Assembly: GCA_015178975.1 (NCBI GenBank)
Contig: WHVD01000012.1
Span: 1,054,001-1,118,000 of the forward strand
Origin: Hysterangium stoloniferum
Lineage: Eukaryota; Basidiomycota; Agaricomycetes; Hysterangiales; Hysterangiaceae
DNA: 64,000 bases
Direction: 5' to 3'
Shown here piece after piece: positions 10,827 through 36,269 of the stretch. Within the stretch, counting starts at the first letter, position 1; each line of letters starts with the position of its first letter. Both the position numbers and the translations under genes were made by a program. The notes beneath the pieces are model-generated. The model was not told the origin of the DNA. It did not search any database and was given only the letters and a program-made list of their open reading frames with translations.

Positions 10827-12220
10827 TCAAGAAGAATCTCCTTCGCCCGTTTCATGATCCTCTGACCGTTCAGGGCTCACATCATCTGCAATGATACATA
10901 AATACTAGAACAGAGATGCAAACGTTGTGACGTACCTGTAATTTCTGCAATAGTTCCAGGCGTTTGCCCTAGTGCATACCAAGCACCTTCCCTAATTCCT
11001 TCCTCTACCTCATACCCAAGTAGGCTACTCCCAAAAACAAACGTCGAAAGATGGTCAACAATTCCAGATGTCGCTATTCCATTGGAAACAGCAATGTACA
11101 GCGTGGTCCAGATATGTGAGTTGCGCGTGATGTGCGTAAGTTTTCCTCTAGACACACGCGTGATTGCATCGAGGTACGCTCCGCGGTAAGTCGCGAGTTC
11201 AGCAGGCGAGTCATAGTCCGCGTTATCTTCTGGAGAGGCATCTTTGGACCAGCCGTAGAACAGCGGGTCCCAATCTACTGTGAGCCACATGGGATACGCT
11301 GCTGCACCACCCTGGCGGGGACAAATGTTCACGTTATCCCAGTCGATGATTCCGGTGATGGTACCGTCGTCATCGACAAGCACGTTCTGAGAGTCAAAGT
11401 CAGGATGAGACAAAACGAAGGGAGGTCCGTCTAGTTTGCTGTCGGTGAGAGCAGAAAGGAATAATTGAAGTACTGCTAGCATCGGCGCGTCAGATGTGTG
11501 TCGTCTGATGGACAAGAGGAAGGACAGGTATGAAAGGGCAGTGTCAAAGGGGCCAGCAGGAACCGGAGTGTCCGGTTCTTTGTAACCTTGGACATCTCTT
11601 ATTAAAGCCGACTCGTCAGGGAATGGTACAACACGATACATTCCAGAGGTGCCATCCCAGTCAAGACGACCAATCTGATCGAACTCGAATGCGGAAAGCT
11701 CTGTCATCCACCCTGCAATCTGCTCGAATATTCTTTCCCGCTTGAGGTCTGTGATCCAGTTTTTGTCGTTCCAAAGCTTCGAGAGATTTGTCCCCGGTAT
11801 GAAGTCCATAATGATAAATGGGTATGAGAGAATGTTGTGAGAATCAAGGGACCAGTCGTGAATACGGGGTATTGGCATGGAAGTCTTGGATGATATGAAG
11901 CGTTGGGTGACAATGTCGAGGTATAAGGAGCGTGCACGGGAGGGGCTAAAGACATCACCTCTAGAAGGCACGCGGATGGCCCATTTAATTCCATCAGAAA
12001 AGGAAACCTCATACACGATATTAAAGAATCCCGTCTGTGGCGGAGTGGAAACTACGCATGAGGTTTCTGGAAGAAGGTCGGTGTAGAGCTTTTGACGAGT
12101 TGTGAGGGCTAGGTCTCGAAGATGCAGGGGGTTGATGGAGGCGATGATGGCGGAGAATTCCTCATCTCCTTCCTCCTCCGACTCATCGTTAGGAGTGTGG
12201 GGTAATTGTTGCTTAAGCAT
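10827..12220 (-). CDS. APH-family phosphotransferase / aminoglycoside-type kinase-like protein
   Basis: Predicted 447 aa in two exons (12220-10936 and 10885-10827, 50-nt intron with GTACGT donor and TTGCAG acceptor). The APH/choline-kinase fold is shown by the Brenner-type motif HPDFDSQN (about residue 272) and the metal-binding IIDWD (about residue 291). The N lobe has IKWAIRVPS with a candidate lysine. Members of this fungal family are soluble phosphotransferases; the substrate here is unknown. The open frame extends upstream of 12220, but the first ATG is at 12220 and a TATATAA lies about 100 nt upstream. Splicing replaces a short tail by an acidic one (SPERSEDHETGEGDSS). It is convergent with nothing on the left and divergent from the kinase on the right. 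Confidence 0.85.
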
Positions 12221-12845
12221 TGGGTCTAGAGTCGAGGACCAGATCTTCAGACGATTTGATAAGTAATGGATCAAGCCAATCGGAGCATTGTCAACTTTTT
12301 CAGAATCGCCACGCAGGTCGTTATATAGGACAGCGTCAAACCCAGTGGTCGATCACGTGAAGACCAATGTGGTCACGTATAGTGACGCATTCCACTTATC
12401 ATATCATTATCTATTCTCTGTCCTCCCCTGTATAGAACGGAAGCCGCATTATATCAGCTATGTACAGTTGTCACATGCAAGCAAAGGGTGCGGGTGTGTT
12501 TTGATCTGACTCGTCTAGCTGCCGGGAAGTGCAAGACCATCCAGCAGGCTGCGGCAAAATAGCCTATACATTCGTTAGGTCCAGGGGGAATATGTGCGAC
12601 AAGCTAATTAGGTTGCAAATAGAAGATACATAGGTTTCACTTGTCATGGTCAATGTCTCATGTAGCCTATAGTGACACACGTCAAGTCACGTGGAGCCGT
12701 GACTGCTATCAGATCAGATCGGTGACCACATCGCCTCCACGGCCTAGGATTCCACTGCTCAAGGTGGTCTCTGTCTGGCTTTGCTTTTGCTTTATACCCA
12801 TTACATTGTCCCCCATATATACCGAATAGCGGTTTCTTTGGTGGT
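12221..12845. promoter_or_regulatory. Divergent promoter region between APH and kinase genes
   Basis: About 625 bp separate the two start codons. A minus-strand TATATAA occurs near 12318-12324, and CCATATATACC near 12811-12821 precedes the kinase ATG at 12846 by about 30 bp. Repeated GTCACGTG/TCACGTGA-like sites (near 12354 and 12687) could bind bHLH factors, which is inference. Confidence 0.45.
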
Positions 12846-15038
12846 ATGGCAGAGACATCCTTCGACGTGATTCCGTTTGACGTACGTCGAGCGATGGTAA
12901 CACATCTGCAATGAAATCCTGACTTGTTTGGTATTTGTAGGATATAAAGGGATCTTGGAAGAAGCTTGGGTCAGGTTCATTTGGAAACGTATACAAAGGT
13001 GCGACTCTCAGAATTTTGCGACCCTCCGATACGCAAACTAAACCAGAAGCTATAGGGACGTACCTTGGAATCGATGTAGCCATCAAGGAAGTGCTGCCTT
13101 CCACAGAGTACGATGTAGCCAAGTACTTTGAACGGGAATGGCGTCTCATGAAGGAAGCACGGCATCCCAATGTCGTTCTTTACCTCGGTCTCTCACGTGC
13201 CCCTGATGGCCGCGTCTTCATCGTGTCAGAGTTCATCGAGAATGGCAACATCAGGCTATATATTCATGACAAGACCAAGCCCTTTGGCTGGAGACTACGA
13301 CTTTCATTTGCCACCGACGTTTGTCGTGCTCTGGCTTACCTTCACGCCCGGAAGGTAAAAATCAAAAATTGTCACTAATACTCTTCAACCCTCTTCTCAT
13401 TTCCTCACGACAGTGTATACACCGCGATCTCAAAGGAGAAAACCTCCTCCTAACAGCCAACCTCCGCGTCAAGATAACCGACTTCGGTTTTGCCCGCATC
13501 GCAGCACGCAACGAAGCCGAAGCCAGACGGCTCACATTCTGCGGAACGGACGCCTACATGTCGCCCGAAATCCTCATCGGAAACGCGTTCGATCTGCCCA
13601 CTGACATATTCAGTCTGGGAATCATATTCGCCGAGATTTCTGCGCGACATCTGGCGGATGATCACCATTTCGCCCGCAGTGCGCCTAGTTTCGGTATTGA
13701 TCCTGCCGAGGTCCGCAGGCGGGCTAGTCCCGGATGTCCCGAGGCTTTTATCGATCTTATCCTCGATTGCTTGAAGGAAGATCCTCAGGCGCGTCCGCCG
13801 GTGACTGAAGTCCTGGCGCGCCTACGTATTATTGAGCTAGAAGTGGTCTCTTGGCCTTCAGAGGAAGCTAATAGCCATGTTGGTAGTGTGAAGTTCCTAA
13901 GCCGAGGACGGCGACCGGGAGCGGCACCTCGGATTCCCAGTTTCGGCTTGGGTGGGGCAAAGAGCGTGCGAAAGGAGAAGTCAGAGACGCTGCATGAACA
14001 AAGCGATGGAGAGAGTAGCGATGATGATCATGAGATTATGGAGGCTGTTATGGCATTGGGAAGTGTGGAATTGGGAGAACACGCTTGGAACGACGGTTTG
14101 TTTGATGGTCTGGCGTCCCTCTGGCTGGGCTAATTATCCCTCCTTACACAGAATTCCAACGTCTGATCCCCTCAGAGACCCAATCTATTCCAACCATTGG
14201 CACCATCTCAACCGTCTCAGACTACAGCACAACTGTTATCAAAGCTGCTCCTAATACTTCCTCACGCTCCTCCATCTTAACTGTTCGACCGGGACCGCCA
14301 GCGAACATTTCCCCCACAGCTAGCACCCTAGGAGCTACTGGACATGCAAGCTTAATCACTATTGATAGTTTTCATACCGCCAACGGCAGCCTTATCAGTA
14401 TCGCTGGCGCTACGGAAGGTGGAAGTACCATTCGAGCACCTAGCATCGCTACGAGCACTGTCGGCTCTGTCCCAGGTGACGCCGCCGCTACCGTCACCAC
14501 TACTCAACTGTCACCCCCTGTCGTCACCACTACTCAACCGTCACCCGCCGCCGTCACCACTCATCAACTCTCACCTGCTACCGTCCCAAATGCTCAAGCT
14601 CAGACCCATGCACGCACAACGACACCCCCCCTCCTGCATCGCTTCACACTAATCAAACCAGGCGCAAAACGCGCGGGTCTATCCTCCCCCTCGCGTAATG
14701 CGTCTCCGGGGCCGAATTCGCGGGTTATGCCGGGTATCATGACGCCCCCCATGCCCTCTTCGCAGTCCACTGGCAGCTCGTCATGGAGTCCGTTCCATTT
14801 CTTCTTTACGAGCGGGCTGTTGAGTGCTCGGTGTGATATTTGTGGGCAGAGGCTGGGCTGGAAGTCGGTGTTGGAGTGTGATGACTGTGGGATAAGGTGT
14901 GTTTTTTTGGCCTTTTCACTTGGTTGTGATGCTGATATATATATGCCTTTTTTTTTACCTCTGGTGTTTAGGACACATCTTAAATGCGGCGATCATGCAC
15001 CTCGAGACTGTGGCATACGTCCAGTGGTTATCCGATAA
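12846..15038 (+). CDS. Serine/threonine protein kinase (TKL-like) with C-terminal C1 zinc finger
   Basis: Predicted 631 aa in six exons: 12846-12881, 12941-12998, 13047-13354, 13414-14095, 14152-14896, 14972-15038. All joins keep frame and use GT-AG. The kinase domain (about residues 13-270) has GSGSFG (22-27), catalytic VAIK (K45), HRDLKGEN (137-144) and DFG (157-159), plus GTDAYMSPE. A Ser/Thr/Pro-rich linker of about 250 residues with an imperfect TTTQLSP-type repeat follows. Residues about 577-622 form a C1 (phorbol-ester/diacylglycerol-type) finger: CDIC, CDDC, then H-x2-C-x7-C. This suggests a signalling kinase recruited to membranes by a lipid or by another partner. The main risk is the 14096-14151 intron, since without it the protein stops at 14133. 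Confidence 0.85.
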
Positions 15039-15733: not shown

Positions 15734-16512
15734 GCCACTCCGATCCCAGCGCATGAATCTAACATAATTGGGAAAAACGAGGACAAAGAAGACATGTGTC
15801 CGGAACTGTGCAGCTTGGCGTGCCGTCGCATATAATGTAATCTGACCCAGTGTATCACGTGCAGTGTTGGGAAGGGACCATTGTCATCGAACGGGTCGTC
15901 CACAACGGCTTTTTTAAACTCAACCGTCATTTCTGTCTGTGTCATATCCGATAGGCCAGATCGTTTGCAATTGCCAGAATAGATTTGTATGTCTGAATTG
16001 ACTCGTTTCCCTCCGAAGTCCACCGCAGGTGTGTCGTGAGCGTCCACGAGATCAAGGTTGGGACAAAATGGTGTCATAAAATTAATCTATATCCTAAATA
16101 AATTCCATGTATCTAAAGGCAACACAAAATTACGTACCCAGGGCTTGTACATGGCAAACTCGGACTTGGATTCATTGAAAGATTTATGTTTTTCCAGTGT
16201 TGAGGCGGTAATTTTGGGACAGGGATTGGGAGCTTTAGGGAGGTATTGACTCAAGAAATCCTCTACTTTGACGGGGCCAACAATTCTCCCAGATATTTCG
16301 TTAGACATCGCGGTGATCCTTTTATCTCTCGCTTCATGCATCGAAGAAAACATCTGTGATGTTGATTCCTTCTTTAGAATAGGAGTCGCACTTAACTTGG
16401 TGGAATCCGCGGTAGGACCCGGCGGTGGTGTTTTCTGGCGCAAATCATGAGGTGATGTCGTGGGTAATGTGTTCTTCGGCCAGGTTGGCGGCTGCCACGT
16501 GTATTTAGTCAC
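15734..16512 (-). pseudogene. FunK1-type kinase, N-terminal relic (copy 1)
   Basis: Exon 16512-16138 and exon 16086 downward join through GTACGT...TAG to give YKPWINFMTPFCPNLDLVDA and then DFGGKRVNSDI and MTVEFKK. These are the N-terminal features of fungal FunK1 kinases. A deletion of about 10-13 bp near 15865 relative to copy 2 (21650) shifts the frame. The gene is cut at 15733 by an LTR, before any catalytic motif. No ATG is seen at the left end of the open frame. Dead fragment. Confidence 0.75.
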
Positions 16513-17498
16513 AGAATAACAGGTCTAGCGACCGGGACTATGGATCCCGTTGCACAACTGTCTGAATCTCCCACAATTCACTCATAACAGAAGTTCACCC
16601 TATTTCCATAACAATAGTAACCGTGTGTCCATTTTCCGCTGAAGTTTTAATCAGCATAGGATAGTTCATAAGAGCGATATCGTCCATCTTTTCACTTCTA
16701 CTGCAGAGTCTCGTGAAAGGAAATACGGTGGATAATGATAATGTATACGATCGAGAACCAGGTAAATCAGTTGATCTACCTGATTTAATAAAAATGCTTG
16801 ATTTGGTAACACACATTTACTGCAGTGTTACGATTTATTGGTATATGTTGCAAGCCGTTGAAGACGCTCACAGCCTTGCTGTGCTCTTTGTTCGGGTTAC
16901 TATATTACCAGGTAGGTATTCGATTTCCTCGATGGGCAATCGGCTAGGTAGTATAGTACTTTACACTAGCTCAGTCATCAGTTGTATTCTACAAGTTTTA
17001 TCTCCCCCTTCACCCGCACGAAAATCCACCGTGTATATTCAACACAAAGAATGGCCGGCGTGTTGTGAATCTTGCAAAGTTCCCCTCGTTGTGCTGTTGA
17101 AATACGCGTGTCTCTATCACGTACTCGAGTAGCAGAAGGCCCTCGCAATTGCGCAAGGTGTTGTATTCGCATGTAGCTACATATATAAATTCTAAGAACT
17201 ATAAATGGGGAAGACACTGGCAGTGTGAAAAAAAGGGGATAATGGGACAATAGGGAAAGGGAAGAAAGGACAATGACCTCCCATGAGGCTTGAATTAACC
17301 CGCAGGGTGCTTAGCTAAAACAACTGCAAGACCAGCCTCTGCAAATTTAGGTCGACGAAAAACCCGAGGACGAGACATCTGTAAAATCACTTCGTATGTA
17401 ATGTACGATCCTTGGGCCTTAAGGGACATTAATCACAAGCGGACAAAGCAGATCAAGGAGGACTCGCCAGGGCTGTTGGTTCTGAGGCAGATCCGCAC
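16513..17498. other. Intergenic, no gene supported
   Basis: Only short frames are present. A minus-strand stretch near 17290-17400 could be an isolated exon end, but no partner exons were found. Confidence 0.35.
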
Positions 17499-17719
17499 GC
17501 ATCAGGGATTTGGGAATGTCTACACCCATTATGCAGACTCCCTAGTCTTCCTGGTCTCCCTAGCTCCTTATATCTATAGTAAGCTTTTATACCGACTAGT
17601 AAATAGGGATCTCACGAAAGTAGTGTGTCTAGCCGAGTCTAGCCGAGCTAGCTAGCTCTCCTAGATGGCTCTAGACAATCTAGACGGCATACTTACTGAT
17701 CTTCCCACTTTCCTGATGC
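17499..17719. mobile_element. MITE-like element, family I
   Basis: Ends are GCATCAGGGATTTGGG and, inverted, GCATCAGGAAAGTGGG. The inside holds GGATCTCACGAAAGTA and CTCTCCTAGATGGCTCTAG. Related copies lie at 45450-45644 and, inverted, at 54239-54527. About 221 bp with no coding capacity. The target-site duplication is unclear. Confidence 0.7.
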
Positions 17720-18488
17720 GGGTTGGTCGATAGTTCCATCACTGACAACAACGTCATCAACACAGTTAAGGTCCTCTGCCTGAAGCAGACTGGATGACAT
17801 CAATTGTCCAGCGCACCTATGAATGAAACCTCAATGATAGCATTGGATGGGAGGGTAAAGGTGTTTTTTTTTGGGGTCCAAATGAAGTGAAGTATCTACT
17901 CGTTTTGAAAAAACAAACATGCCGCGGCACTTGCACGACGCTTTCTTATAGCCCATGCAGAATCCGAGGTTCCCTTTTAACCTCGTATCGCAAACTGCAG
18001 AAAGGTTCTTCAGACGACATAGATTTAATGTTTGAATAGGCATCATATGGCAGATAGATCCTTGTCCTATCCCAGCGAATGCACTACCTTGCGCGATAGT
18101 ACCCTGGCCCTCAACCTACCCTCAAGACCTTAGGACTACCGTTCCATTGATCAAGCTCAACGCTTTCACTCTCTAAATTCCGGTGTGTTAGGTATCATGC
18201 AATTTTTCTCATATTGAAAGTATCTCGCGACATGACCTCAATAGGAAGAAGAAATTGTTGCGGGAACTAGCCTTGCCGGATGGAACTTCTGGAACGAGGC
18301 GGGACTCGGACGTTGGAGGTTACTGAACAACGACAGCGGATTTATATGGTATTAAATTTTGATACAATAGAAAAATGATGATGCAGTTCGGATACTTGGT
18401 ATGTTATATTTGGGCCCCCATCCATCTTCCTAAACAAGATACCGAAATAAATCGACGGATCCTAATAGTAAAGAAGAAGAAAACATTT

Positions 18489-20294
18489 TCAAAATGGGTT
18501 CTTAATGTAGAAACCTGCAGATTCCTCTATGTCCGGGACAGGAACACGGGGTCTATACCACCGAACGTCAACGTACCCTATGTTGTTAGCATTGTTGAGT
18601 ATCCGGTCCCATTCTTCCCGGGTGAAAGAGTCAATGTGCCTGAGGCGTTTGTGTTCCTTCATTCTTTTGAAAAGATATTGGTTCTCAGATACATCAATTC
18701 CATGGATAATGAAACCCCCTTCCAACCGAACGAGAAGCTTCAGCTTGAGGAGAGAGTTGACTACTGTATCTGCAATGTGACGCTATAACATCGACGTTAA
18801 TCTTATTATGCGTGAGCTTGATGTCTTTAAATAGACGTACGTTGTCATGAGAGTCACTGCTCTGCATGTGCCAATGGCGGTAAGAAATATGAAGTTGTTC
18901 AAGGCTTGGGACAACCTCAACAAAACGTTGAAATATTTCCAAATCCATCCCAATGGCATTGAAGACACGTAAGGAAGTCATTGCTTGGAGGTTGGGTAAG
19001 CATTTCGCTGTGACTGAACATTCCAAGTACTGTAGTTGTTGAGCATTATCCAAAGGAAACCAGTCGCAGAGAGGCTTGGTATAGTCATTGAAGTTGCCAA
19101 GTACCAGGGAACGAAGTCGAGACACGGGCTGTGGCTTAAAACATGACCCACCATGATCAGTGAGAATTCGGAGACGTTCGAGATTTGGATGCTTGTGGAG
19201 GAAGGTTGTGAATTCATTCTCGTCCTCCACATTGGTGAAACGGCTGCTCTCTGTAAGAGGGAATAGACAAATATGCCCTTCAAGTGATAATTCAATGAGG
19301 AAAGGCCAATATGCATGTTGGAAGATGACCACGCTATCAAAGTAGTCGTCGGTATCCATCCTAAAAGCAAGCCGTAGATGTTTCAATTTTGTCAAATGCA
19401 CAATCCAATCTCGAAAGAGATTATGCCATTTATTATCTTCCCAAGGGACATGATCGATGGTTAGGCCAAGCGTCGTAAGATTGGGAAGATTCCCTAACTG
19501 ATTGTTTAAAAGGGTCATTACAACGGACAAGTTTGAACGGGTTATATCGGGCTTACTGGCAAAATAGGCTTGAGTTTCACAGGCATCCACAGAGTCACCC
19601 CATCAATTATTAAAGGTGGATCATTCGAGTCCTGTCTCAAGCCAAAACAGAATTCATCGATATCGTTTAGTTGCTCAAGGTTAATGGACAGCGATTTGAA
19701 ATATGCAAGGTGTAGGGCCTCACTCCATCGAAAACGGCGCAGATGTGTCATACACTTTACGGCAGTAGCGAGTAACGACACACCCATATCGAAGAACTTT
19801 TGTTTACGGAGTGGTAGACGGTCTGAGAAAAATGGTATAATAGGTTCGCACTTCTCAAAATCCTCATCAAATAATTCGAGTGTCCGAATTCTCACAGCCA
19901 GTTTGGGGTTAGAAGTAATCCTATTCCATACATCCAATCGGCAGGGGTCGCACCGAATGTGGTGATCAAGAAACTCCGGGATGATTATGCGGTGGAAGAT
20001 CTTTGATGTCAGCGCCAAACTTAGGAGGTCATGACGCTGCTCGACATGAGAGACAATGATAACGACGACTTCTTCGGGATGAGTGAAAAGTGGACCTTTA
20101 TACTGGGGTGCTTGTGTTAATGGGCATGTTTCCGGTGCGAGGAGTATGTCTGAAGTATTTCCGTTCTGTAACGCTATCAGTGAGCCGGCACTGGAGGCTG
20201 TCGGGGGTGGCAATTGCACCATGTCAGAATGGGGGCGGATGCAAAGGCGGACACAGACACTATGGACCCACAACACGTCGTCTTTTGCTTCCAT
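18489..20294 (-). CDS. F-box / leucine-rich-repeat-like protein (left palindrome copy)
   Basis: Predicted 562 aa in three exons: 20294-19557, 19497-18841, 18782-18489, with 59- and 58-nt introns (GTAAGC and GTACGT donors). An F-box-like segment near residues 70-115 reads HPEEVVVIIVSHVEQRHDLLSLALTS (shown in part) and ends IIPEFLDHHIRCDP, typical of basidiomycete F-box proteins. Repeated LxxLxxLxL-type stretches follow. Known role of the family: substrate adaptors of SCF ubiquitin ligases; the target is unknown. Intact. It is a near-copy of the gene at 23818-25627, with the differences concentrated after residue about 125. Confidence 0.85.
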
Positions 20295-20299
20295 TTCGG

Positions 20300-20930
20300 C
20301 AATTTTTGCTTCCTTCCTCGGTCTGGATCTTTAAGTCAGCAGAGGGATCGAAGGAGTCATTCGATGGAATCTTGTGGATGAGATAGTTTTAGTTATGTTT
20401 TTGTATAAAAGGAGGAGATCCTTGTATAAATCAATCAACAGAAGCAATATTGTCTTCATAATAAAGGACAGATAATAACCTTAGGGTGAAACAGAGTAAA
20501 TCTAAAAGTATCATTGGTGAAATCTCTATGTATATTCCCCAAACGGTGCCTTGTTCTTGGATGCCATTCAAAGGGGTTTTCCTGCCATTCAAAGTGCCCT
20601 TGCCGCCGTTCTAAAATGTCTTCGTTGCTGTTCTAAAATGTCTTTGTCGCCATTCAAAAACCTCTTCATTGCCTTTCAATAACTTTCATTGCTGTTCAAA
20701 GGCTTCTTCTTCGCCATTCCAAAAGGTCTTTGTCGCTGTATCCTATATCTAATATATATAATATATCGATAACGGATCGGCGCCACACTCAGTCTTCGGC
20801 GCCATCGGATGGGTAGGTGGAGTTGATAGATTACGCTCAACACGGTCACCAGGCTCATTCCAACCACTGTTATGTAACGCCGTCGTTAATTCCCATTCCA
20901 TCCAGTCTGAGCGCTCAAGGGCAGCTAGCC
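20300..20930. other. Arm interior between F-box gene and FunK1 3' end
   Basis: This is the F-box promoter side, with an irregular run of related phrases around CCATTCAAA and TCTTCGTTGCTGTTC (20570-20740), about six to eight units of 25-30 bp. The same run appears inverted at 23390-23560. No coding function is evident. Confidence 0.6.
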
Positions 20931-20933
20931 TTT

Positions 20934-21219
20934 TCAAGTACTTCCCCGCAGGTAAAGCAAAAAGAATGCGTGATCATCCGCTGGCTTGCCAAGGGCCACA
21001 AGGTTGACATCCGATGACCCTTGCTTCTCGAAGAGTTGTTTATATTGAGCAATTTCTTTTGCCTTCGGCGCCTTTTCGTATCGTACTGCAAATGTTATGA
21101 CCAATGTCTCGATCATCTCCTTCAACGGGACATTGAATAAACGAAAAACTTAAGAAGGGTCAGAGAAGCACACTTCCACTTTCTTCCTATCTCCTCCTTT
21201 CGCAGGTCCGTCAGGGTCT
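20934..21219 (-). pseudogene. FunK1-type kinase 3' end (left arm copy)
   Basis: The minus strand reads KEMIETLVITFAVRYEKAP and QYKQLFEKQGSSD, then a frameshifted tail ending LYLRGST. The same tail, with the same frameshift, is in the right arm. It has no upstream kinase part on this strand and is therefore a by-product of the palindrome. Confidence 0.85.
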
Positions 21220-23180
21220 GTTGGTCCCGTCAAAGTAAAGCATTTCTTGAGTCAATACCTACCTAAAGCTCCCAATCCCTGTACCAAAATTACCGCCGAA
21301 ACATTGGAAAAACATAAATCTTTCAGTGAATCCAGATCCGAGTTTGCCATGTACAAGCCCTGGGTACGTAATTTTGTGTTGCCTTTGGATATCATGGAAT
21401 TTATTTAGATATAGATTAATTTTATGGCACCATTTTGTCCCAACCTTGATCTCGTGGACGCTCATGACACACCTGCGGTGGACTTCGGAGGGAAACAAGT
21501 CAAGCCAGACATACAAATATATTCTGCCAATTGCAAGCGATCTGGCCTATCGGATATGACACAGACAGAAATGACTGTTGAGTTTAAAAAAGCCATTGTG
21601 GACGACCCGTTCAGGGACTATCCGTTCAGGAACGATGGTCCCTTCGAGCGTACTTCCGACGCTGCGCGTGATACGCTGGGTCAAATTACATTATATGCGA
21701 CGGCACACCAAGCTGCACAAGTCCGGACACATGTCTTCTTTGTCCTTGTTTTCCCCAAATTATGTTAGATTCATGCGCTGGGATCGGAGTGGCGTTATCG
21801 TGACGGAAAAAGTCCTTTTCTCAAATTCTTCCTACGTCGAGTTCTTTTGGCGGTTTAATCACGCCAGCCCTGCTGCACGTGGCGTCGATACTACCGCCAC
21901 AGAATTTCCACACAACCACCCTGCTGCGGTAAAGGCCAAAAGGTCCCTCAATGTCGAAGACGGTGACCGACTGTTTCATGTTCAACTTGATCCAAAAGGC
22001 CCACAATTATGTATTTTATTGTCCCACCTACATGGCTGTAGGATCTCCCCTCGGCCGCTCGACTCGTGTGTTCAAGGCCTACTGTGTCGAAACTGGGAAG
22101 CTGGTACTTCTCAAGGACACATGGAGGGTTGTTTCCGCCACTCAAAGTCCCGAACATATGATATATGAGGAGCTGAAGAAACATGGGGTGAGGAATATCT
22201 GCACGTGCAAGGAGGGATGTGATGTTTTACAGCAGTTTACCAAGACGCAGGATTCATCAATGCCAAAACCTCCTAAGCCATTGAGGCGGTTGCAACACTA
22301 TCGACTCGTTTTGAACGAGATCGGAAGGTCTCTGGGCGATTTTAGGGATACAAAGGAGATGGTGACTGCAGTAAGAGATGCCATCATAGGTACATATATC
22401 GGTCTCTTGACGGAATTGGCGCTGATTCCCTTTCGACAGCTCATGGGGAGGCTTATGACAAGGCTGAAAATCTTCACCGAGATATCAGCTCAGGCAATAT
22501 CCTTATCACTGCGACAGGTGGCGGATTGTTAATTGACTGGGATCTCTGCAAAAAGCTTAAACATATACAACAAGGACAGGCGCAGACTGAAAGGACTGTG
22601 AGTACCTCCCCTAGTGGCCGAATCGTATTGGGAATTCTTCTGAATTTTTGTTTGGCGTTTTGTGATTCCCTTCTCTCTGTTTCTGCCATGGACAGGGCAC
22701 CTGGCAATTCATGGCTGCTCGTTTGCTGGTGGTTCCTCCTTCTGGGCAGCCACCGGTGATCCCCGACCGTGCCGACGACTTGGAATCCTTCTTCTACGTC
22801 CTTGTCTGGATTGCTTTGAGATATACCGAGCACGGCTTTTTCAATAGTGCGCTCACCGACATGCTCCATGCCGCTTTCGATCATCATTATCTGGACCCTG
22901 ACGGAGCTGCGAAAGGAGGAGATAGGAAGGAAGTGGAAGTGTGCTTCTCTGACCCTTTCCGAGTTTCTCGTTTATTCAATGACCCGTTGAAGGAGATGAT
23001 CGAAACATTGGCCATGACGTTTGCAGTAAGATACGAAAAGGCGCCGAAGGCAAAAGAAATTGCTCAATATAAACAACTCTTCGAGAAGCAAGGGTCATCG
23101 GATGTCAACCTTGTGGCCCTTGGCAAGCCAGCGGATGATCACGCATTCTTTTTGCTTTACCTGCGGGGAAGTACTTGAAA
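21220..23180 (+). pseudogene. FunK1-type protein kinase (copy 2), nearly complete but frameshifted
   Basis: The spacer and start of the right arm hold most of a FunK1 gene. Exon to 21363 (FAMYKPW), then about 21412 onward (INFMAPFCPNLDL, DFGGKQVKPDI, AQVRTHVFF), RWDRSGVIVTE near 21780, GSPLGRSTRVFKAY near 22050, LHRDISSGNIL near 22471 and LLIDWDL near 22525. It then continues through a 111-nt intron to GTWQFMAARLL and the conserved C terminus (DDLESFFYVLVW). FunK1 kinases keep HRD but use IDWD in place of DFG, as seen here. Single-base shifts occur near 21762, near 22010 and near 23140. The N-terminal end is cut at the arm junction. Confidence 0.85.
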
Positions 23181-26100
23181 AGGCTAGCTGCCCTTGAGCG
23201 CTCAGACTGGATGGAATGGGAATTAACGACGGCGTTACATAACAGTGGTTGGAATGAGCATGGTGACCGTGTTGAGCGTAATCTATCAACTCCACCTACC
23301 CATCCGATGGCGCCGAAGACTGAGTGTGGCGCCGATCCGTTATCGATATATTATATATATTAGATATAGGATACAGCGACAAAGACCTTTTGGAATGGCG
23401 AAGAAGAAGCCTTTGAACAGCAATGAAAGTTATTGAAAGGCAATGAAGAGGTTTTTGAATGGCGACAAAGACATTTTAGAACAGCAACGAAGACATTTTA
23501 GAACGGCGGCAAGGGCACTTTGAATGGCAGGAAAACCCCTTTGAATGGCATCCAAGAACAAGGCACCGTTTGGGGAATATACATAGAGATTTCACCAATG
23601 ATACTTTTAGATTTACTCTGTTTCACCCTAAGGTTATTATCTGTCCTTTATTATGAAGACAATATTGCTTCTGTTGATTGATTTATACAAGGATCTCCTC
23701 CTTTTATACAAAAACATAACTAAAACTATCTCATCCACAAGATTCCATCGAATGACTCCTTCGATCCCTCTGCTGACTTAAAGATCCAGACCGAGGAAGG
23801 AAGCAAAAATTGCCGAAATGGAAGCAAAAGACGACGTGTTGTGGGTCCATAGTGTCTGTGTCCGCCTTTGCATCCGCCCCCATTCTGACATGGTGCAATT
23901 GCCACCCCCGACAGCCTCCAGTGCCGGCTCACTGATAGCGTTACAGAACGGAAATACTTCAGACATACTCCTCGCACCGGAAACATGCCCATTAACACAA
24001 GCACCCCAGTATAAAGGTCCACTTTTCACTCATCCCGAAGAAGTCGTCGTTATCATTGTCTCTCATGTCGAGCAGCGTCATGACCTCCTAAGTTTGGCGC
24101 TGACATCAAAGATCTTCCACCGCATAATCATCCCGGAGTTTCTTGATCACCACATTCGGTGCGACCCCTGCCGATTGGATGTATGGAAGAGGATTACTTC
24201 TAACCCCAAACTGGCTGTGAGAATTCGGACACTCGAATTATTTGATGAGAATTTTGAGAAGTGCGTATCTATTATACCATTTTTCTCATACCGTCCACCA
24301 TTCCGTAAACAAAAGTTCATCGATAAGGGTGTGTTGTTACTCGCTACTGCCGTAAAGTGTATGACACATCTGCGCCGTTTTCGATGGAGTGAGGCCCTAC
24401 CCCTTGCATATCCCTTCAATTCGCTGTCCATTAACCTTCAGGAACTAAACGATATCGATGAATTCTGTTTTGGCTTGAGACAGGACTCGAATGATCCACC
24501 TTTCATAATAATTGATGGGGTGACTCTGTGGATGCCTGTGAAACTCGAGCCTATTTTGCCAGTAAGCCCGATATAACCCGTTCAAACTTGTCCGTTGTAA
24601 ATGACCCTTTTAAACAATCAGTTAGGGAATCTTCCCAATCTTACGACGCTTGGCCTAACCATCGATCATGTCCCTTGGGAAGATAATAAATGGCATAATC
24701 TCTTTCGAGATTGGATTGTGCATTTGACAAAATTGAAACATCTACGGCTTGCTTTTAGGATGGATACCGACTACTTTGATAGCGTGGTCATCTTCCAACA
24801 TGCATATTGGCCTTTCCTCATTGAATTATCACTTGAAGGGCATATTTGTCTATTCCCTCTTACAGAGAGCAGCCGTTTCCACAATGTGAAGGACGAGAAT
24901 GAATTCACAACCTTCCTCCACAAGCATCCAAATCTCGAACGTCTCCGAATTCTCACTGATCATGGTGGGTCATGTTTTAAGCCACAGCCCGTGTCTCGAC
25001 TTCGTTCCCTGGTACTTGGCAGCTTCAATGACTATACCAAGCCTCTCTGCGACTGGTTTCCTTTGGATAATGCTCAACAACTACAGTACTTGGAATGTTC
25101 AGTCACAGCGAAATGCTTACCCAACCTCCAAGCAATGACTTCCTTACGTGTCTTCAATGCCATTGGGATGGATTTGGAAATATTTCAACGTTTTGTTGAG
25201 GTTGTCCCAAGCCTTGAACAACTTCATATTTCTTACCGCCATTGGCACATGCAGAGCAGTGACTCTCATGACAACGTACGTCTATTTAAAGACATCAAGC
25301 TCACGCATAATAAGATTAACGTCGATGTTATAGCGTCACATTGCAGATACAGTAGTCAACTCTCTCCTCAAGCTGAAGCTTCTCGTTCGGTTGGAAGGGG
25401 GTTTCATTATCCATGGAATTGATGTATCTGAGAACCAATATCTTTTCAAAAGAATGAAGGAACACAAACGCCTCAGGCACATTGACTCTTTCACCCAGGA
25501 AGAATGGGACTGGATACTCAACAATGCTAACATCATAGGGTGCGTTGACGTTCGGTGGTATAGACCCCGTGTTCCTGTCCCGGACATAGAGGAATCTGCA
25601 GGTTTCTACATTAAGAAATCATTTTGAAAATTTTTTCTTCTTCTTTACTATTAGGATCCGTCGATTTATTTCGGTATCTTGTTTAGGAAGATGGATGGGG
25701 GCCCAAATATAACATACCAAGTATCCGAACTGCATCATCATTTTTCTATTGTATCAAAATTTGATACCATATAAATCCGCTGTCGTTGTTCAGTAACCTC
25801 CAACGTCCGAGTCCCGCCTCGTTCCAGAAGTTCCATCCGGCAAGGCTAGTTCCCGCAACAATTTCTTCTTCCTATTGAGGTCATGTCGCGAGATACTTTC
25901 AATATGAGAAAAATTGCATGATACCTAACACACCGGAATTTAGAGAGTGAAAGCGTTGAGCTTGATCAATGGAACGGTAGTCCTAAGGTCTTGAGGGTAG
26001 GTTGAGGGCCAGGGTACTATCGCGCAAGGTAGTGCATTCGCTGGGATAGGACAAGGATCTATCTGCCATATGATGCCTATTCAAACATTAAATCTATGTC

Positions 26101-26226
26101 GTCTGAAGAACCTTTCTGCAGTTTGCGATACGAGGTTAAAAGGGAACCTCGGATTCTGCATGGGCTATAAGAAAGCGTCGTGCAAGTGCCGCGGCATGTT
26201 TGTTTTTTCAAAACGAGTAGATACTT
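22894..26226. repeat. Right arm of large inverted repeat
   Basis: Reverse complement of 17892-21219. The first 25 bp are slightly diverged, and near-identity starts at GGAGATAGGAAGG (22917). The arm ends at 26226, immediately before another copy of GGAGATAGGAAGG, so its first about 390 bp are repeated directly after its end. Confidence 0.93.
23818..25627 (+). CDS. F-box / leucine-rich-repeat-like protein (right palindrome copy)
   Basis: Predicted 563 aa in three exons: 23818-24561, 24622-25275, 25334-25627. Introns are 60 and 58 nt and all junctions keep frame. The F-box-like region and LRR-like body match the left copy. Residues 1-125 are identical in both; about eighteen changes and two single-residue insertions fall between 24185 and 24561, and about nine more downstream. 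The start ATG follows GCCGAA and sits at the same place in both copies. Both genes look intact, so either may be expressed. Confidence 0.85.
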
Positions 26227-26617
26227 CGGAGATAGGAAGGAAGTGGAAGTGTGCTTCTCTGACCCTTTCCGAGTTTCTCGTTTATTCAATGTCCCGTTGA
26301 AGGAGATGATCGAAACATTGGCCATGACGTTTGCAGTAAGATACGAAAAGGCGCCGAAGGCAAAAGAAATTGCTCAATATAAACAACTCTTCGAGAAGCA
26401 AGGGTCATCGGACTTCAACCCTGTGGCCCTTGGCAAGCCGGCGGATGATGACACAATTCTTTCTGCTTTACTTGCGGGGAAGTACTTGAAGCGACTAGCT
26501 GCCCTGGAGCGCTCAGACTGGATGGAATCGGAATTAACGACGGCGTTACAGAACAGTGGTTGGGATGAGCATGGTGACCGTGTTGAGCGTGATCTATCTA
26601 TCAACTCCACCTCCTAG
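26227..26617 (+). pseudogene. FunK1-type kinase 3' end (copy 3, reading frame preserved)
   Basis: It reads DRKEVEVCFSDPFRVSRLF and onward to GKPADDDTILSALLAGKYL and RSDWMESELTTAL, ending at a stop at 26617. Unlike the two arm copies it has no frameshift in the ADDD segment, so it represents the ancestral C terminus. It has no kinase core in front. Confidence 0.85.
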
Positions 26618-29091
26618 CCAGCCGATGGTGCCGAAGACTGAGTGTGGCGCTGATCTGGCCTCAGATGACCTATTTCGCTAATAATGCAAGATACCTGCAT
26701 ACCCATATGGAACTCGATTGTAGACCTCAGTATTTTGTTGAATACATACCCTGATGTGATATGACCGCGAGTACGCCAGTTTGAACACTGTTGAAATACA
26801 GCCTGTCACAGCATTACCGGGCCTTTTCAGTAAAACTTCTTTCTTATTAAAAACGGCTAATCCAAGGGTGGATTTGATGTTTTTTCTGTCCCAGGGAAAT
26901 TCACCGTAAGGCTCTGGCAGGCAATTGAAAATTATACCAATGTAGTGATAAATTTACGTGGGTTTTGAAGTCCTAGTACGAATTGATATTTCATTAATTA
27001 TTTGTTCCTGTGACGTACTAAATCCGTTGTCGTTGTCCCATAAGCCCCAACTTCCGAGTCCCCCCTCATTCCAGAAATCCCATCCGGCAAGGTGAGTCTC
27101 CACAACAGTTTCCTCGCTACTGAGATCATGTGGAGATAATTTCAATATTAGTGATAATAAACTGGATTACATTTTACATTCATTAGTTATCAATTCGGGA
27201 AGGCTGTATATGTACCTTTAGAAGTGGGTACCTGCCTCGGCAATGTTCAACGTCCTCTCCATCTACCAGCGACCCGACGTGCTGCGACACAGTGAGTATT
27301 TGTGTCCTAATGGAAAATTGCCTTTATCATGTGTTATGTCGAACTCTTCTTTCTAAGTTGAGACACGGTTGTTTTCTCTCTAAGTAATTCTGCCCCCCCC
27401 CCCCCCCCTCTCCCTTAAAAACGATTATCTATTTATCTATTTGAGAACACCGACAACCGGCCATCATTTATGAGGATGGCTGGGGTAACTATGATACTTC
27501 CCCGGGAGTTACTTAGAAGGGGATAAGGTTCTCTCTCAGACCGTAACTAAAAAATCCTTAAATCTTCAGAGTCCTCGAGCATTCCACAATGTTCCATAAG
27601 GTTCCAGTAAATCCCCGAATGAACCTCACATAACCAATAGTAATAAAGGTAGTCGATAGGTTTGGAAGACTGTATACCTTGCGCACTGTTTCAATCATCC
27701 TAAACATTAATTCGATAACTTGACTTCAGTTAACACACGGGGCTCCACCTGTTCCACCTGTCTACTTTTGAAGTTTCGCAGTACCAAGTGCCAAATTGTC
27801 GATCTTGGAATCGTTGAAAACATTAATATCTCCGAGTCCCTATGAACAGTAGAATTCTCGTGTATAAATTGCGTGCCTTCCGAGTCGAAAGTTGTAACTT
27901 CATGGGTAGAGCCGAGAACATTACACGTCTCCAAGCGCCCCTGAAAACAAAAATTCTTACCATATAACTTCCATGTCTTCAGAGATGCTTGGGTTCTTTA
28001 TGTGGAAAATTTCAGACTTAGTGATAACGTTTAACACAACTACATTTGTAATGACTACATACCATTCATACCTGAACCGAAGTGAAGGTTGGAACTAATA
28101 TTTAAACTTGAGTTGGAACATTGTACGGACGAATCAACCATCACGTGGGATATATAATGCGTTCAGTTCGACCTGCTAAGTTAGAGAATATGAAACTCCC
28201 CCTGCATAGAGCGTCGATCCATGCATCGTATATTTCATTCTTAGACACCATACCCACACGGTTAGCTAAACCCCATACAGGGAGTGAATGGCGCCAAATT
28301 GACGCTCCAGATCACTCTGTAGAGATAGACAGCTTTGTTGACAGTCGGGAATAAAAGTAAATCCGAAGTCCCTAACGAAATTCCGTGCCACATGGTGACA
28401 AAAAAAAACAATTGACAGCACTGTTTGACGTACGACGCATCCATTCATGAGATTGTTGATTGATGGTCCTATAGTGGCACTAAATTGGCTTAACACGGGA
28501 CTTTGTTGGCCGAGCTGCGACAGATGACAAGCGATATAACACTATTGGCAGACGATATCAGCGACACCAAGCCACTCAGCGTAGGACCTGGATTTTGGAA
28601 CTGCCAAATATCGATGCCATTCGGCCCACCACAGATCTCAAGAGGGCTCAAGAGGGCTATCGACACATGGTGTGCTACATGCAGAATCCGAGATAGGCGT
28701 GGGGTTACCTTCCAAGGTCGTATCGCAAACTGCAGCAATGATTCTTCAGATGACATAGATTTAATGTTTGAATAGGCGTCATACGGCAGATAGATCCTTG
28801 TCCTATCCCAGCGAACGCACTACCTAGCTCGAAGCATGTGGATGTGCATGATTCGGTGGAGAGAGGATTTGGGGTCACTTGAGTGAACAATGGGGATGAC
28901 CTACACTCCCTAATATGTCGAAGTTATGTATGTATCGTGAGATAGAAATACTCACCCAAAATCGAAGCAACCAAGATGCACGGTGTTCGGGGGTGTAACG
29001 ATGCTGGGTGAGCTTGAACCGGTGAAGTGATAGAGATTCAAATGGTTAGATCTGCCACAGAGTTTGTTGGCATTTCCAAGACAAGGTAACA
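26618..29091. other. Intergenic region with decayed copies of palindrome flanks
   Basis: No complete gene is recognisable. 26990-27150 is a diverged copy of the flank at 25775-25900 (shared CCCGCCTCGTTCCAGAA-like and CATCCGGCAAGG). 28680-28830 is a diverged copy of 17950-18095, inverted relative to 26045-26165. A run of 16 C lies at 27393-27408. A minus-strand frame at 27707-27934 is open but unrecognised. Confidence 0.5.
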
Positions 29092-29446: not shown

Positions 29447-30056
29447 GTAAGTCACAGAACAGACTGCCAGCCTCAGGGGTTATGGTAAATCTGCAGATGA
29501 TGTCATCTTCCAGCAGGATAATGATCCCAACCATACCTGCAAGAAGGCCCAAAATTGGTTCCAAGAAAATGGTTTCAGGGTTCTCTCATGGCCAGCACAG
29601 TCTCCTCACCTGAATCCCATTGAACCCTTATGGAATCACCTGAAGAGGAAGTTGGCAGGGTATGAGAATGCACCCCAGGAGATGGAAGAGCTTTGGGAGA
29701 GGGTGGTGGAAGAATGGTACAATATTGATGCAAAGGTGTGTCAGGATTTGATTCAAAGTATACCTAGGAGGGTTGCAGATGTATTAAAGGCAAAGGGTGG
29801 CTATACCAAGTACTAAATATAAGTAATTTCCTTCCAAAAGCCTATCAGTGACAAAAGGTATCCAATGACCCCTCTCTATTAAAATATTCATATTGTTACC
29901 ATATATTGATATCACATAATGACATTATGGTACCTTGGACTATGCATGATAGAGCATGTTGGAAAATATTTTGATGATTGTTATGATTTTATCTACTGGG
30001 GTATAAGCTATACAGTTTAAAACTGCAAAACATTGGATCCATTTTGTAAGTCACTG
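29447..30056 (+). mobile_element. Tc1/mariner fragment 1 (3' part)
   Basis: From about 29465 to 29816 one frame reads YGKSADDVIFQQDNDPNHT, then LNPIEPLW, ending YTKY and stop. These are the second Asp and the Glu of the DD34E site. The right terminal repeat ends CATTTTGTAAGTCACTG... in the form TTTTGTAAGTCACTG at 30056, followed by TA. The 5' half is missing, replaced by MITE H. Confidence 0.8.
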
Positions 30057-30751
30057 TATAGAGAAGGATCTGTGATGGTATGGGGCTGCATGCTGTGGGA
30101 AGGACCTGGATATACTTGCAAGATAGATAGGAGGATGGATGGGGACCTTTATCTCAAGATTATGGAGGAGGACCTTCAAGCCAGCCTCAACTATTATGGA
30201 AAATCTGTGGGTGATGTCATCTTCCAGCAAGATAATGATCCCAAACATACCTGTAAGAAGGCCCAAACTTGGTTTCAGGATAATGATTTCAATGTCCTCC
30301 CATGGCCAGCACAGTCTATAGAGCTCAACCCTATTGAACACTTGTGGGATCACATAAAGAGAAGGCTGGGGGAGTATGAGGTTGAACCAAAAGGGATACT
30401 GGAGTTGTGGGAGAGGGTGGAGGAGGAATGGAACAAGATTGATGTTGAGGTGTGTCAGAAGTTGATTGAGAGTATGTTTAGGAGGGTTGCAGCTATGTTG
30501 AAGGCAAAGGGGCTATACTAAGTACTGAATATAAGTAGTTTGTGGGTCAGAGTTGTCAGCCAAAAAACCCTTCCAATGAGTCTCCTGTATATATATATTT
30601 GTAGTATTTCCATATTTGGAGCTTATGTAATGGCACTGTATTTCAATAATCTAGATATGATAGAGCATATTCACAAATACTTTTGAAATTTTTGAAATTT
30701 TATCCTATACATCTGAAGTACCAAACATTGGAAGAGTTTTGTGAGTCACTG
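30057..30751 (+). mobile_element. Tc1/mariner fragment 2 (3' part)
   Basis: From about 30060 to 30521 it reads REGSVMVWGCMLWEG, VIFQQDNDPKHT and ELNPIEHLWDHIKRRL, an open C-terminal transposase half from a different subfamily (about 60-70% similar by eye). The right end is GTTTTGTGAGTCACTG at 30751, followed by TA. Fragment 1 ends exactly at its left edge at a TA, so fragment 1 inserted into it. The missing 5' part was not found. Confidence 0.8.
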
Positions 30752-31076: not shown

Positions 31077-31660
31077 TGTCAGGGCAATATATGGTTGCCA
31101 TTTATTTTATTTAAGTTTATGATATTTTTCTACATTTCTCTATATTTTTTCTATATTTTATAAGGTGCATATATGCACCTACACACAGATACAGGTGCAT
31201 ATATGCACCTACACACAGATACAGGTGCATATATGCACCTACACACAGATACAGGTGCAAACATGATTATGTAATCACACCACCCCATGCCACCATTGCA
31301 AAGTCGTCGTCGCTGTCGCTGTCGTTGCATAGCTGTATCTGCTGTTGTTGTCGTAAAGTCGCCGCCACTGTCACTGTCATCACACAGCCGTATCTGCCAT
31401 TGTCATCGCAAGGTCACCACAACCATTGTCATTGCAAGGCCATCACAGCCATCATCATCACGAGGTCGCCACTGCTGCCCAAAACCTGGTTGACACACAG
31501 TGCTTTGGGGGGCATGTACATAGCTAGTCTTTAGTTTCAATCTCTTAGGAATCCCACTAAAAACAAGTGTGATCTCCCCTGTCATTGAGCTATCCCCTCT
31601 TCACTTCCTATTACTGTGTTTTATCTTGTGTTTGGTAGCCTTGTTAGTGTTGCCCTAACA
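31077..31660 (+). repeat. Solo LTR, family F
   Basis: Starts TGTCAGGGCAATATATGG and ends GCCCTAACA, with a perfect duplication GCTAT at 31072-31076 and 31661-31665. Length 584 bp. A long region of GTC/CGT-type imperfect trinucleotides (31290-31470) and a threefold 30-bp repeat lie inside. The inverted relative is at 36270-36944. Confidence 0.92.
31166..31257 (+). repeat. Three tandem copies of a 30-bp unit containing a palindrome
   Basis: Each unit contains GGTGCATATATGCACC, a perfect 16-bp palindrome, followed by TACACACAGATACA. The related LTR at 36270-36944 has a single unit. Confidence 0.9.
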
Positions 31661-32079
31661 GCTATTGAGACTTGCTTATGTCCCTATCAGCATATTTTGT
31701 ACAATAGAGCCTGTGGCTCCCAGATTCACTTCCACTGGAGGTCTGCTCATCCAACCATGGACAGACATAAAGGTTGCAATGTGATCACATGATATTTTCA
31801 CTTTACAATGCTTCCAAAACACATCAAAACCAAATGGCCTCAGTCAGATAAATTGTTGAGGTCCAAGGTTCAAGGCTTAAAGGTAAAAGAGTTGCAAGGT
31901 CCCACATGCTGAGTACATACTCAACTGGAGAGTCTGGTTCTACTAATCAATGAATATCTTTAGTAGTGTTTAGATATTAGATTACAAGGTCTATGCACGA
32001 TTCTGAGAAGGGTCTGTGCATGACACCTAGTACTGCTTTAGGTCTTAGCTAGATGCACAAGCATGTATATAATCTAGGG

Positions 32080-33664
32080 AGTTAAGGAGTGCGTGTGGAG
32101 CTTATCAGAGGGTTTCCAGAGAAACCTGTGGGAAAGCTGGTAGGACTTGGCTTCAGCTTATAGGCTGCACCCTTGTGAGATCGTGTCATCCAATTTCAGA
32201 CAGGTAGATGGAATCCCAGGGAGTCCAGGAGTAGTTGGTGGGTTGAGAGGTCAGAGAGTCAATTGCGGGAATCCCACAGAGGTTGAGGGGTCAGGCAGTG
32301 ATGGGTCAGAGGTCAAGTGATAGATAGGTTGGAGGTTGAGTGATAGATAGGTTGGAGATTGAGTGATAGATAGGTTGGAGCCCATGGGCTCTGATGAGAT
32401 AATTAGCGGTGTGTTTCAAAGAGGAATAGAGTGGAAAATGTACTGAGATTACTGGGGGGAATCTAAGCTGATTTTCTGACTGGATTGTATGTACAACATC
32501 TCCCAGACTATGGAGGGTGTTTATAATTACTATAATCTCAAATATTTATTAATAAAAGCCTTATTTTTACAAAACTCCATCTTTAAATAGTGATATCTAT
32601 TCTGAAACAATTATATTGTCAAAAGACAATCATCAGAAATAGTTCTCCATATTACATTTTATACAACCCATAGTTATTTAATAAATTCCATTGTATATAA
32701 TTTTCTTCCTTTTACAGATACCTACTAATACTTTTATTAGTACTTTGTTTTTTTAAAATTGTAATGTAGTTATTTCCATGTAAAATATGTAAAATATTAT
32801 TGGAAATTTTTCATACCACAGCTGTCTTTATTAAGTGAAACCCCCTATATATTCTGGGTATGTTGAATCAAGTAGAAATCTGTTCAGATTGACAGATCCA
32901 TTCCAAAGTAATACATATGTATTTAGAGGTGCCAATGATATATATGTATGCATGGAATAGACTATCTAAAGGTATCTATTTTTTAAAAGTATTAGTATTT
33001 CAAACTACTAATTTTTTTTATTGTCTACTGGTGTCCAGAAAGATTCTTTAGTTGGTAATGTATGAGAGAGTTTAAAACTTTCAAAAAGTTTTAAAAACCA
33101 AATTATGTTTGAATCACATCCCAGATGTATAAATGACCTTTAGAGTATATTAGAATTTGGTATACTTAATAGTTTTCAGATATCCTCCTATATAGACTGT
33201 GGAATGTATGTTATACCAAATCCAGTAATAATGAAATCCAAACTAGTAATCATGAAATGAGATAAGTAAACACCAAATTAGGTATTAGGAATGGAATGGA
33301 ATGGGGGCGGAGTCTGAAATGTGACAGGTCGTTTGACCATAATGGGAATAGGGCAGGAGTGGAGTCCAAAATGTGACAGGTCATTTGACCATAATGGGAA
33401 TGGGGCTCAGTTAGAGAGCTGATGGGTTTTCCAAGTGGAGTCCAGTAACTGATGCATGGGACAGAGTCAGAGATAGACAGGTATGACATGTGCGGTCCCA
33501 GCAGGTATTCTGGTGACTGATTCATGAGACAACAAAGGTTGGACATGGGCAGGTTCATCATCCAGGTCCCAGTGGGTATTCCGGTTAACTGATTACTAGT
33601 GCGTAAAGGGTGTGGGTGCCTATAGGGTAGTGCCCAGAGTCCAGTGGGTTTTCCAGTTGTAACA
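32080..33664 (-). repeat. LTR, family A, minus strand, with MITE inside
   Basis: It runs from GTTAAGGAGTG at 32081 to AGTTGTAACA at 33664. Without the insertion at 32511-33188 it is about 905 bp. The excess over 820 bp fits an AGTGATAGATAGGTTGGAG-type tandem repeat at 32318-32395. The shared block is at 32143-32161. Flanking 5-mers TAGGG and GACAG do not match, so it may be recombined. Confidence 0.75.
32511..33188. mobile_element. Non-autonomous TA-inserting element (678 bp)
   Basis: It interrupts the LTR sequence GACTATATAGAC exactly, with TA on both sides (32509-32510 and 33189-33190). Ends are TGGAGGGTGTTTATAA and, inverted, GGAGGATATCTG; only the terminal GGAGG matches well. Very AT-rich, no coding frame. 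Family unknown to me. Confidence 0.65.
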
Positions 33665-33724
33665 GACAGTAGGTCCTTAACTTTGTAATTGACTTGGGTA
33701 CATGGCATCTACTGTAGTCTGAGT

Positions 33725-34308
33725 ACAGATAGTCCCTAACAGTAATAAAACTAAAGTTAACACTTAGCTTAATCAACTGGGAGACCAAAATACTAAGGGT
33801 CAAAGTAATATGAGTCTTGGCTGGCCAAATAATTAGCAGAGAATAAACAGTACAAGGTATCAATGAAGTAAAGTACCACACAAGCCTTTTTATAAGGAAT
33901 AAGTAGAGAATTGGCAAACCTAAGTTGATATTTGAACTAAAGAACTGCAGAATACAAGACAAGGGCTTTTATACTAAGCAAGACAGATGATCAGAAGGCC
34001 AATCATGGAGATTAGAAAACAAATGGGTCAAAAGAAGCAAATAACTGAACAAGGGATCAAAATAAACTAAATGCAAGGTAATAGATGAATACTAAATGGT
34101 TTGAGATGGGAAATGATGTATACACATAGAATAAGTGATAGGAAAGCATTGGGGTGGGGGCAGAATGGAATAGACAAAGGGTAATATGTAATAAATGAAG
34201 TGGCAGGATACTGCTGGTGACACTGCAATTAGGGGTACCAATGTGGGAATGCCAGAGGATTGTCAAACTGAAACAAGTTGCAGAGCCCTACAAATGATAT
34301 TCCTAACA
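33725..34308 (-). repeat. LTR family D fragment
   Basis: Shares CACTTAGCTTAATCAACTGG with the family D copy at 35535-37272 and ends ATTCCTAACA at 34308. The left end is not defined. The same segment resembles 2041-2330. Confidence 0.55.
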
Positions 34309-36116: not shown

Positions 36117-36269
36117 TAAGAGTCAAAGAATAGAGTGTCATAGCTTGCCAAAGACCACTCTTATGAGTGTAGTGATGAGAGAGAGACAGAAGAACTAAGA
36201 GAGGCTAATATAAGTTGATATTCAAACTGAAGAACTGTAGTGTACATGGAAAGAACTTATACTACATCA

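What the first reader, a model, noticed from the sequence alone, without database searches (positions are those of the whole stretch)
17892..26226. Large palindrome carrying FunK1 and F-box genes
Arms of 3.3 kb are near-identical and inverted around a 1.67-kb spacer. Each arm has a whole F-box gene and a FunK1 3' end; the spacer holds the FunK1 kinase core. Both families are strongly expanded in Agaricomycetes and may take part in recognition or signalling. A palindrome pairing them suggests a local amplification mechanism or a co-inherited unit.
Basis: partly seen in the sequence, partly recalled or inferred. Interest (0 to 1): 0.78.

Follow-up and report, generated by a model that had tools for sequence, protein, structure and literature searches.

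The report
Inverted duplication in a FunK1 nest
In a fungal genome a 3.3-kb piece holding an F-box gene was copied in inverted orientation beside a broken FunK1 kinase gene, and the two F-box twins now differ only by changes that alter the protein.

Summary
The palindrome is real: arms 17889-21218 and 22894-26227, 98.5% identical over 3337 columns, 1675-bp spacer, inside a 1.4-Mb contig, with different flanks. Each arm holds an open three-exon F-box/LRR-like gene model (560 and 559 aa). The FunK1 core in the spacer is a broken copy without its 5' end. FunK1 copies are abundant (115 merged loci, a lower bound) and inverted neighbours recur: 17 of 22 neighbouring pairs within 12 kb, one repeat family left out, lie on opposite strands, against 4 of 17 F-box pairs; two further FunK1 palindromes were seen (C248, C475). 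So local inverted amplification is supported. A FunK1/F-box unit is not: 1 of 115 FunK1 loci has an F-box hit within 5 kb, this one. The F-box gene looks like a passenger that lay downstream of a FunK1 3' end before the duplication.

The most unusual point was not in the finding: the F-box twins differ at 26 bases in 25 codons plus 3 one-codon indels, no synonymous change, while 1204 non-coding arm columns outside the FunK1 end differ at 2. This hints at diversification after duplication, but it is one post hoc case. Best reading: a foldback-type inverted duplication end-joined into a FunK1 nest. No new system is shown.

The parts
17889..21218 (.). left arm of the palindrome
   Evidence: 98.47% inverted match to 22894-26227
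21219..22893 (+). spacer: FunK1 copy B, broken, without its 5' end
   Evidence: PF17667; frames compared with relatives; junction 21218|21219
22894..26227 (.). right arm of the palindrome
22894..23339 (+). FunK1 3' end in the right arm, continuous with the spacer as in other copies
20773..21218 (-). FunK1 3' end in the left arm; 14 substitutions against the right arm in 446 columns, one in-frame stop in the tblastn alignment
23818..25627 (+). F-box/LRR-like gene of the right arm, modelled exons 23818-24561, 24622-25279, 25347-25627, 560 aa
   Evidence: models and relatives broken at like positions
18489..20294 (-). F-box/LRR-like gene of the left arm, modelled exons 20294-19557, 19497-18837, 18769-18489, 559 aa
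25775..25908 (+). 134-bp piece that follows the FunK1 3' end after about 250-385 bp in several other copies; here the F-box gene lies between
18208..18341 (-). the same 134-bp piece in the left arm
26162..26227 (+). outer tip of the arm: piece of a dispersed repeat, cut off at the arm edge (mirror copy 17889-17954)
15734..17718 (-). FunK1 copy A: pieces of the 5' half and upstream region, cut off at 15734
26228..27257 (+). FunK1 copy C: 3' tail and downstream region

Best explanation
A local inverted duplication in a nest of FunK1 copies, made by ordinary DNA repair and not by a dedicated element. Proposed order: (1) an F-box/LRR-like gene came to lie downstream of a FunK1 3' end, in place of the usual few hundred bp; (2) that FunK1 copy lost its frame; (3) a broken DNA end inside it folded back, the spacer forming the loop, and copied the flanking 3.3 kb in inverted orientation; (4) the product was end-joined between FunK1 copies A and C; (5) the arms are young or were kept alike by exchange between them; (6) the F-box twins changed at amino-acid level. 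Shown: the anatomy, the right inner junction as in relatives, the novel left inner junction, the shared frame break, the passenger position, the difference pattern. Inferred: foldback, end joining, exchange between arms, selection.
For: Arms and spacer. FunK1 runs unbroken across 22893|22894 in relatives such as L030-L035, but not across 21218|21219. A frame change shared by both arms. The F-box gene stands between a FunK1 3' end and a 134-bp piece that are 248-384 bp apart in several other copies. Only the two arms match the arm over its whole length in the genome. Other inverted FunK1 arrangements with other breakpoints: C248, C475; 17 of 22 neighbouring pairs opposite within 12 kb. Differences between arms are unevenly spread (largest gap 929 bp among 43 merged events; 4 of 100000 random placements reach it). 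F-box twins: 25 non-synonymous codons, 0 synonymous.
Against: Microhomology at the inner junction is 0-1 bp by eye, so foldback annealing leaves no mark here. The outer edge of the right arm coincides with a junction that cuts both a dispersed repeat and FunK1 copy C, which foldback in place does not explain without a fragment end there. The inner 136 bp of the left arm carry 13 of the 14 FunK1-end differences, so arm-to-arm exchange does not act everywhere. At 6 kb the orientation excess is 7 of 10 pairs, p 0.34, and pairs may share ancestry. The amino-acid-only pattern is one post hoc case.
Confidence: 0.6

Rival explanations
1. Recombination or inversion between FunK1 copies that already stood in opposite orientation made the structure, without foldback copying.
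For: FunK1 copy A (minus) stands beside B and C (plus), and opposite-strand neighbours are common.
Against: The left arm joins FunK1 core B at 21218|21219 with no shared sequence in the relatives aligned; a simple inversion moves DNA and does not duplicate 3.3 kb.
Confidence: 0.2
2. The palindrome is a mobile element with long terminal inverted repeats (foldback-type or FunK1-bearing transposon).
For: Both arms end at the same base of a dispersed repeat; a dispersed block with two convergent FunK1 genes exists in this genome at 97-99.7% identity.
Against: Only the two arms match over the whole arm length; no target-site duplication at the edges by eye; no transposase domain in the arm or spacer frames scanned; 11 FunK1 units showed no common pair of ends within the 1.5-kb flanks held.
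Confidence: 0.09
3. One arm is an assembly error.
For: The genome is in 554 contigs and C248 has an almost perfect palindrome that could be one.
Against: Here the arms differ by 41 substitutions and 10 gap columns, have different flanks, and lie inside a 1,417,034-bp contig; the three in-frame indels are whole codons and the one-base indel at 19517 lies in a modelled intron. Raw reads were not available.
Confidence: 0.05
4. FunK1 and the F-box gene form a co-inherited functional unit.
For: They are adjacent in both arms.
Against: 1 of 115 FunK1 loci has an F-box locus within 5 kb, this one; the FunK1 parts here are broken.
Confidence: 0.03

Closest known systems
Foldback inverted duplications in yeast (PMC10622511, passages read)
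   Same: Inverted duplication proposed to start at a break whose strand folds back; a spacer between the arms.
   Different: The yeast events use short inverted repeats (for example 5 or 11 bp) and give hairpin-capped, dicentric chromosomes; here the structure is interstitial, the loop would be 1675 bp and no inverted repeat is seen at the junction.
Gene-bearing palindromes of mammalian sex chromosomes (PMC6790999, search listing and start of abstract only)
   Same: Inverted arms carrying genes; arms that look homogenised.
   Different: Kilobase scale, autonomous locus in a fungus; exchange between arms is inferred from clustering of differences only.
Lineage-specific FunK1 expansions (PMC3203195, passages read)
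   Same: FunK1 copies amplified by lineage-specific duplication, often in non-syntenic regions.
   Different: The passages seen do not describe inverted pairs or palindromes; here inverted neighbours are frequent.

Membership tests
Gene-bearing palindrome (inverted segmental duplication) | two near-identical inverted arms with genes around a spacer | tested here: met
Gene-bearing palindrome (inverted segmental duplication) | arm-to-arm gene conversion | tested here: inconclusive
   differences are clustered (4 of 100000 placements); no strain data
Terminal-inverted-repeat or foldback transposon | several copies with the same ends | tested here: not met
   whole arm matched only by the two arms (candidate lists are capped)
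Terminal-inverted-repeat or foldback transposon | target-site duplication | tested here: not met
   flanks read by eye; a 5-bp GAAGT is doubled at the left edge only
FunK1 (PF17667) | profile match above the curated cut-off | tested here: met
   40.0 and 33.2 bits for two spacer frames, cut-off 24.1; a third frame 21.9, below it
FunK1 (PF17667) | intact kinase gene | tested here: not met
   5' end absent and frames broken
F-box/LRR protein | F-box profile above cut-off | tested here: inconclusive
   21.1 bits on the spliced protein, cut-off 24.3; 24.4 in the genome search for both copies
F-box/LRR protein | leucine-rich repeats | tested here: inconclusive
   LRR_14 E 4.3e-4, 19.6 bits, cut-off 40; no convincing solved relative by sequence, best E 0.26
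F-box/LRR protein | binds Skp1 in an SCF complex | not testable with these tools
   needs a binding assay

The most novel reading that the evidence does not exclude
The palindrome works as a diversifier of an F-box/LRR recognition gene: exchange between arms keeps promoter, introns and flanks alike while selection drives amino-acid differences between the twins, mostly in codons 124-245 just after the F-box, so that one duplication yields two target specificities.
Probability: 0.2. Interest if true: 0.65.

Novelty: new member of a known kind. Interest (0 to 1): 0.38.

Why it matters
It points to inverted local duplication as one route by which FunK1 copies multiply in this genome, and shows that FunK1/F-box adjacency is incidental here. 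If the amino-acid-only divergence of the F-box twins holds in other strains, diversifying selection on expanded fungal F-box genes becomes directly testable.

Tried and rejected
Co-inherited unit: rejected by the adjacency count. Subtelomeric origin: near-identical FunK1 copies stand near the ends of C527 and C442, but a (TTAGGG)4 search gave 11 overlapping-counted matches (7 forward, 4 reverse) that I did not link to FunK1, and I dropped the question. FunK1 unit with fixed mobile ends: 11 units compared pairwise showed nested rearrangements and no common pair of ends; only about 1.5 kb of flank was held, and some matches run to the end of it. Exchange with a distant F-box paralogue as source of the twin differences: it should bring synonymous changes, and none was counted. 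Donor for the left arm's inner FunK1 stretch: best match is the right arm (94%), then copy C (93%), then others at 89% or less; no distinct donor. Transposase in the convergent-FunK1 repeat: 6 frames of L048 gave no transposase hit; other frames were not scanned. Literature: 7 searches; 'F-box' with 'FunK1' gave one paper (PMC4751544, listing only). Structure prediction, fold search and RNA-family search were not used.

Bookkeeping: the arm alignment counts 25 coding substitutions in ungapped columns, the codon alignment 26, the tblastn-based count 27; gap and intron edges make the difference. The Fisher test (p 0.0011 at 12 kb) counts the excluded repeat family as one extra opposite pair (18 against 5). 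FunK1 merging gave 115 loci and 117 because the merging rule differs. One search printed 34 of 91 pairs. In one search the codon 124-245 values for C305 equal those of C44b and look unreliable.

Full report
OBSERVATION. The window is C24:1054001-1118000 of a 111-Mb genome in 554 contigs. Arms 17889-21218 and 22894-26227 are inverted copies at 98.47% over 3337 columns with a 1675-bp spacer. They differ by 23 transitions, 18 transversions and 10 gap columns. The contig is 1,417,034 bp long.

FUNK1 ANATOMY. The spacer and the first 446 bp of the right arm form one FunK1 stretch, as in other copies. Its 5' end is absent: at 21218|21219 the sequence changes from inverted arm to FunK1, while copy A and six relatives (L030-L035) continue upstream. 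Where L030-L035 have an open frame of 366 aa, the spacer pieces lie in several frames; both arms share a further frame change near the 3' end, so this part was broken before the duplication. Outside the arms lie FunK1 5'-half pieces at 15734-17718 (minus), cut off at 15734, and a FunK1 3' tail with downstream region at 26228-27257 (plus).

F-BOX PASSENGER. In several other copies (C152, C277, C61, C254, C396, C128) the FunK1 3' end is followed after 248-384 bp by a 134-bp piece; in the arm about 2.4 kb with the F-box gene lies between them. The nearest relative of the F-box stretch is at C1:3196135-3198209, in pieces of 88% and 82% identity, with 2 stops in the tblastn piece of its first part. 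Relatives of about 70% stand on C215, C44, C528, C133 and C13. The arm gene is modelled with three exons, and relatives break at like positions.

RECURRENCE. Hits were merged into 115 FunK1 loci and F-box hits into 150 loci; the hit lists are capped, so these are lower bounds. One FunK1 locus has an F-box locus within 5 kb, this one (1.5 expected), 2 within 10 kb (3.1), 3 within 20 kb (6.0), 5 within 50 kb (14.5). Within 12 kb, neighbouring FunK1 loci with the repeat family left out lie on opposite strands in 17 of 22 pairs (binomial p 0.017), F-box pairs in 4 of 17. At 6 kb the FunK1 figure is 7 of 10 (p 0.34) and the F-box figure 2 of 9. Several FunK1 pairs may descend from one ancestral pair, so the p-values are too optimistic. 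C248 has arms of at least 8819 bp at 99.93% around a FunK1-bearing spacer; C475 has a 2.1-kb palindrome with FunK1 3' ends at 92.7%.

F-BOX TWINS. In 558 compared codons the twins differ at 26 bases in 25 codons, each of which changes the amino acid; 3 further codons are single-codon indels; no synonymous change is found against 368 synonymous sites. The chance of none in 26 is 0.0012 with equal rates and 0.0004 with a transition weight of 2. Coding columns differ at 25 of 1677, non-coding arm columns outside the FunK1 end at 2 of 1204 (Fisher p 1.1e-4); the FunK1 end differs at 14 of 446. At the 25 substitution columns of the coding range listed, the C1 relative agrees with the right copy at 9, with the left at 5 and with neither at 11 (my count from the listing). 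Five close family pairs have 8 to 10 synonymous changes among 24 to 37; the closest pair has 2 of 5. The contrast with the C215/C44 pair gives p 0.001. Against a simple selection story: pN/pS lies between 0.44 and 1.25 in the other 33 pairs printed of 91; codons 124-245 hold 16 of the 27 twin changes of that count and vary in some other pairs, but have no amino-acid change in the 6 pairs among C528c, C528d, C528e and C174b; and the test was chosen after seeing the data. FunK1 frames of six relatives show pN/pS 0.10-0.59 in 15 pairs.

MECHANISM. The right inner junction looks ancestral and the left one novel, which fits copying from a folded-back broken end with the spacer as loop. By eye, microhomology there is at most 1 bp. 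The outer edge cuts both a dispersed repeat and FunK1 copy C, and no target-site duplication is seen. I therefore favour an inverted duplication end-joined into the nest and give transposition a low weight. The uneven spread of arm differences (4 of 100000 placements) fits exchange between arms but does not prove it. At 13 columns of the inner FunK1 stretch (22906-23029) the left arm differs from the right; at 5 of these it carries the base of most other copies, at the other 8 the right arm does.

LITERATURE. PMC3203195 (passages) reports lineage-specific FunK1 expansion and enrichment in non-syntenic regions. PMC10622511 (passages) describes foldback inverted duplication in yeast. PMC8893723 (passages) names F-box proteins and fungal-type protein kinases in fruiting-body data. 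The other papers were seen in listings only. The functions of FunK1 and of this F-box family remain open.

Noticed in passing
L044, L045, L055, L056 (C248:21500-42330): A palindrome with arms of at least 8819 bp at 99.93% around a 3.2-kb FunK1-bearing spacer in a 47,986-bp contig; very recent or an assembly foldback.
   Followed up: partly
L048-L051 (C290, C347, C374, C267): A dispersed block of 6 kb or more with two convergent FunK1 genes, 97-99.7% identical between contigs, partial matches on further small contigs; nature unknown.
   Followed up: partly
L057 (C475:208516-210629): A 2.1-kb palindrome without spacer joining two FunK1 3' ends, 92.7%.
   Followed up: partly
window 31077-36944: Inverted end pieces (122 bp 99%, 273 bp 83%, 152 bp 98%) bounding about 5.9 kb; looks like a DNA element with terminal inverted repeats.
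   Followed up: no
window 29451-30521 and 47298-48003: DDE_3 transposase remnants at 29451-30521 with related DNA at 47298-48003.
   Followed up: no
window 2195-10108 and 32098-35793: Many diverged inverted matches (about 76-92%) between these two stretches, perhaps two old copies of one repeat.
   Followed up: no
window 10877-14133: An APH-family frame (10877-12352, minus) next to protein-kinase frames (12941-14133, plus) just left of the FunK1 nest.
   Followed up: no
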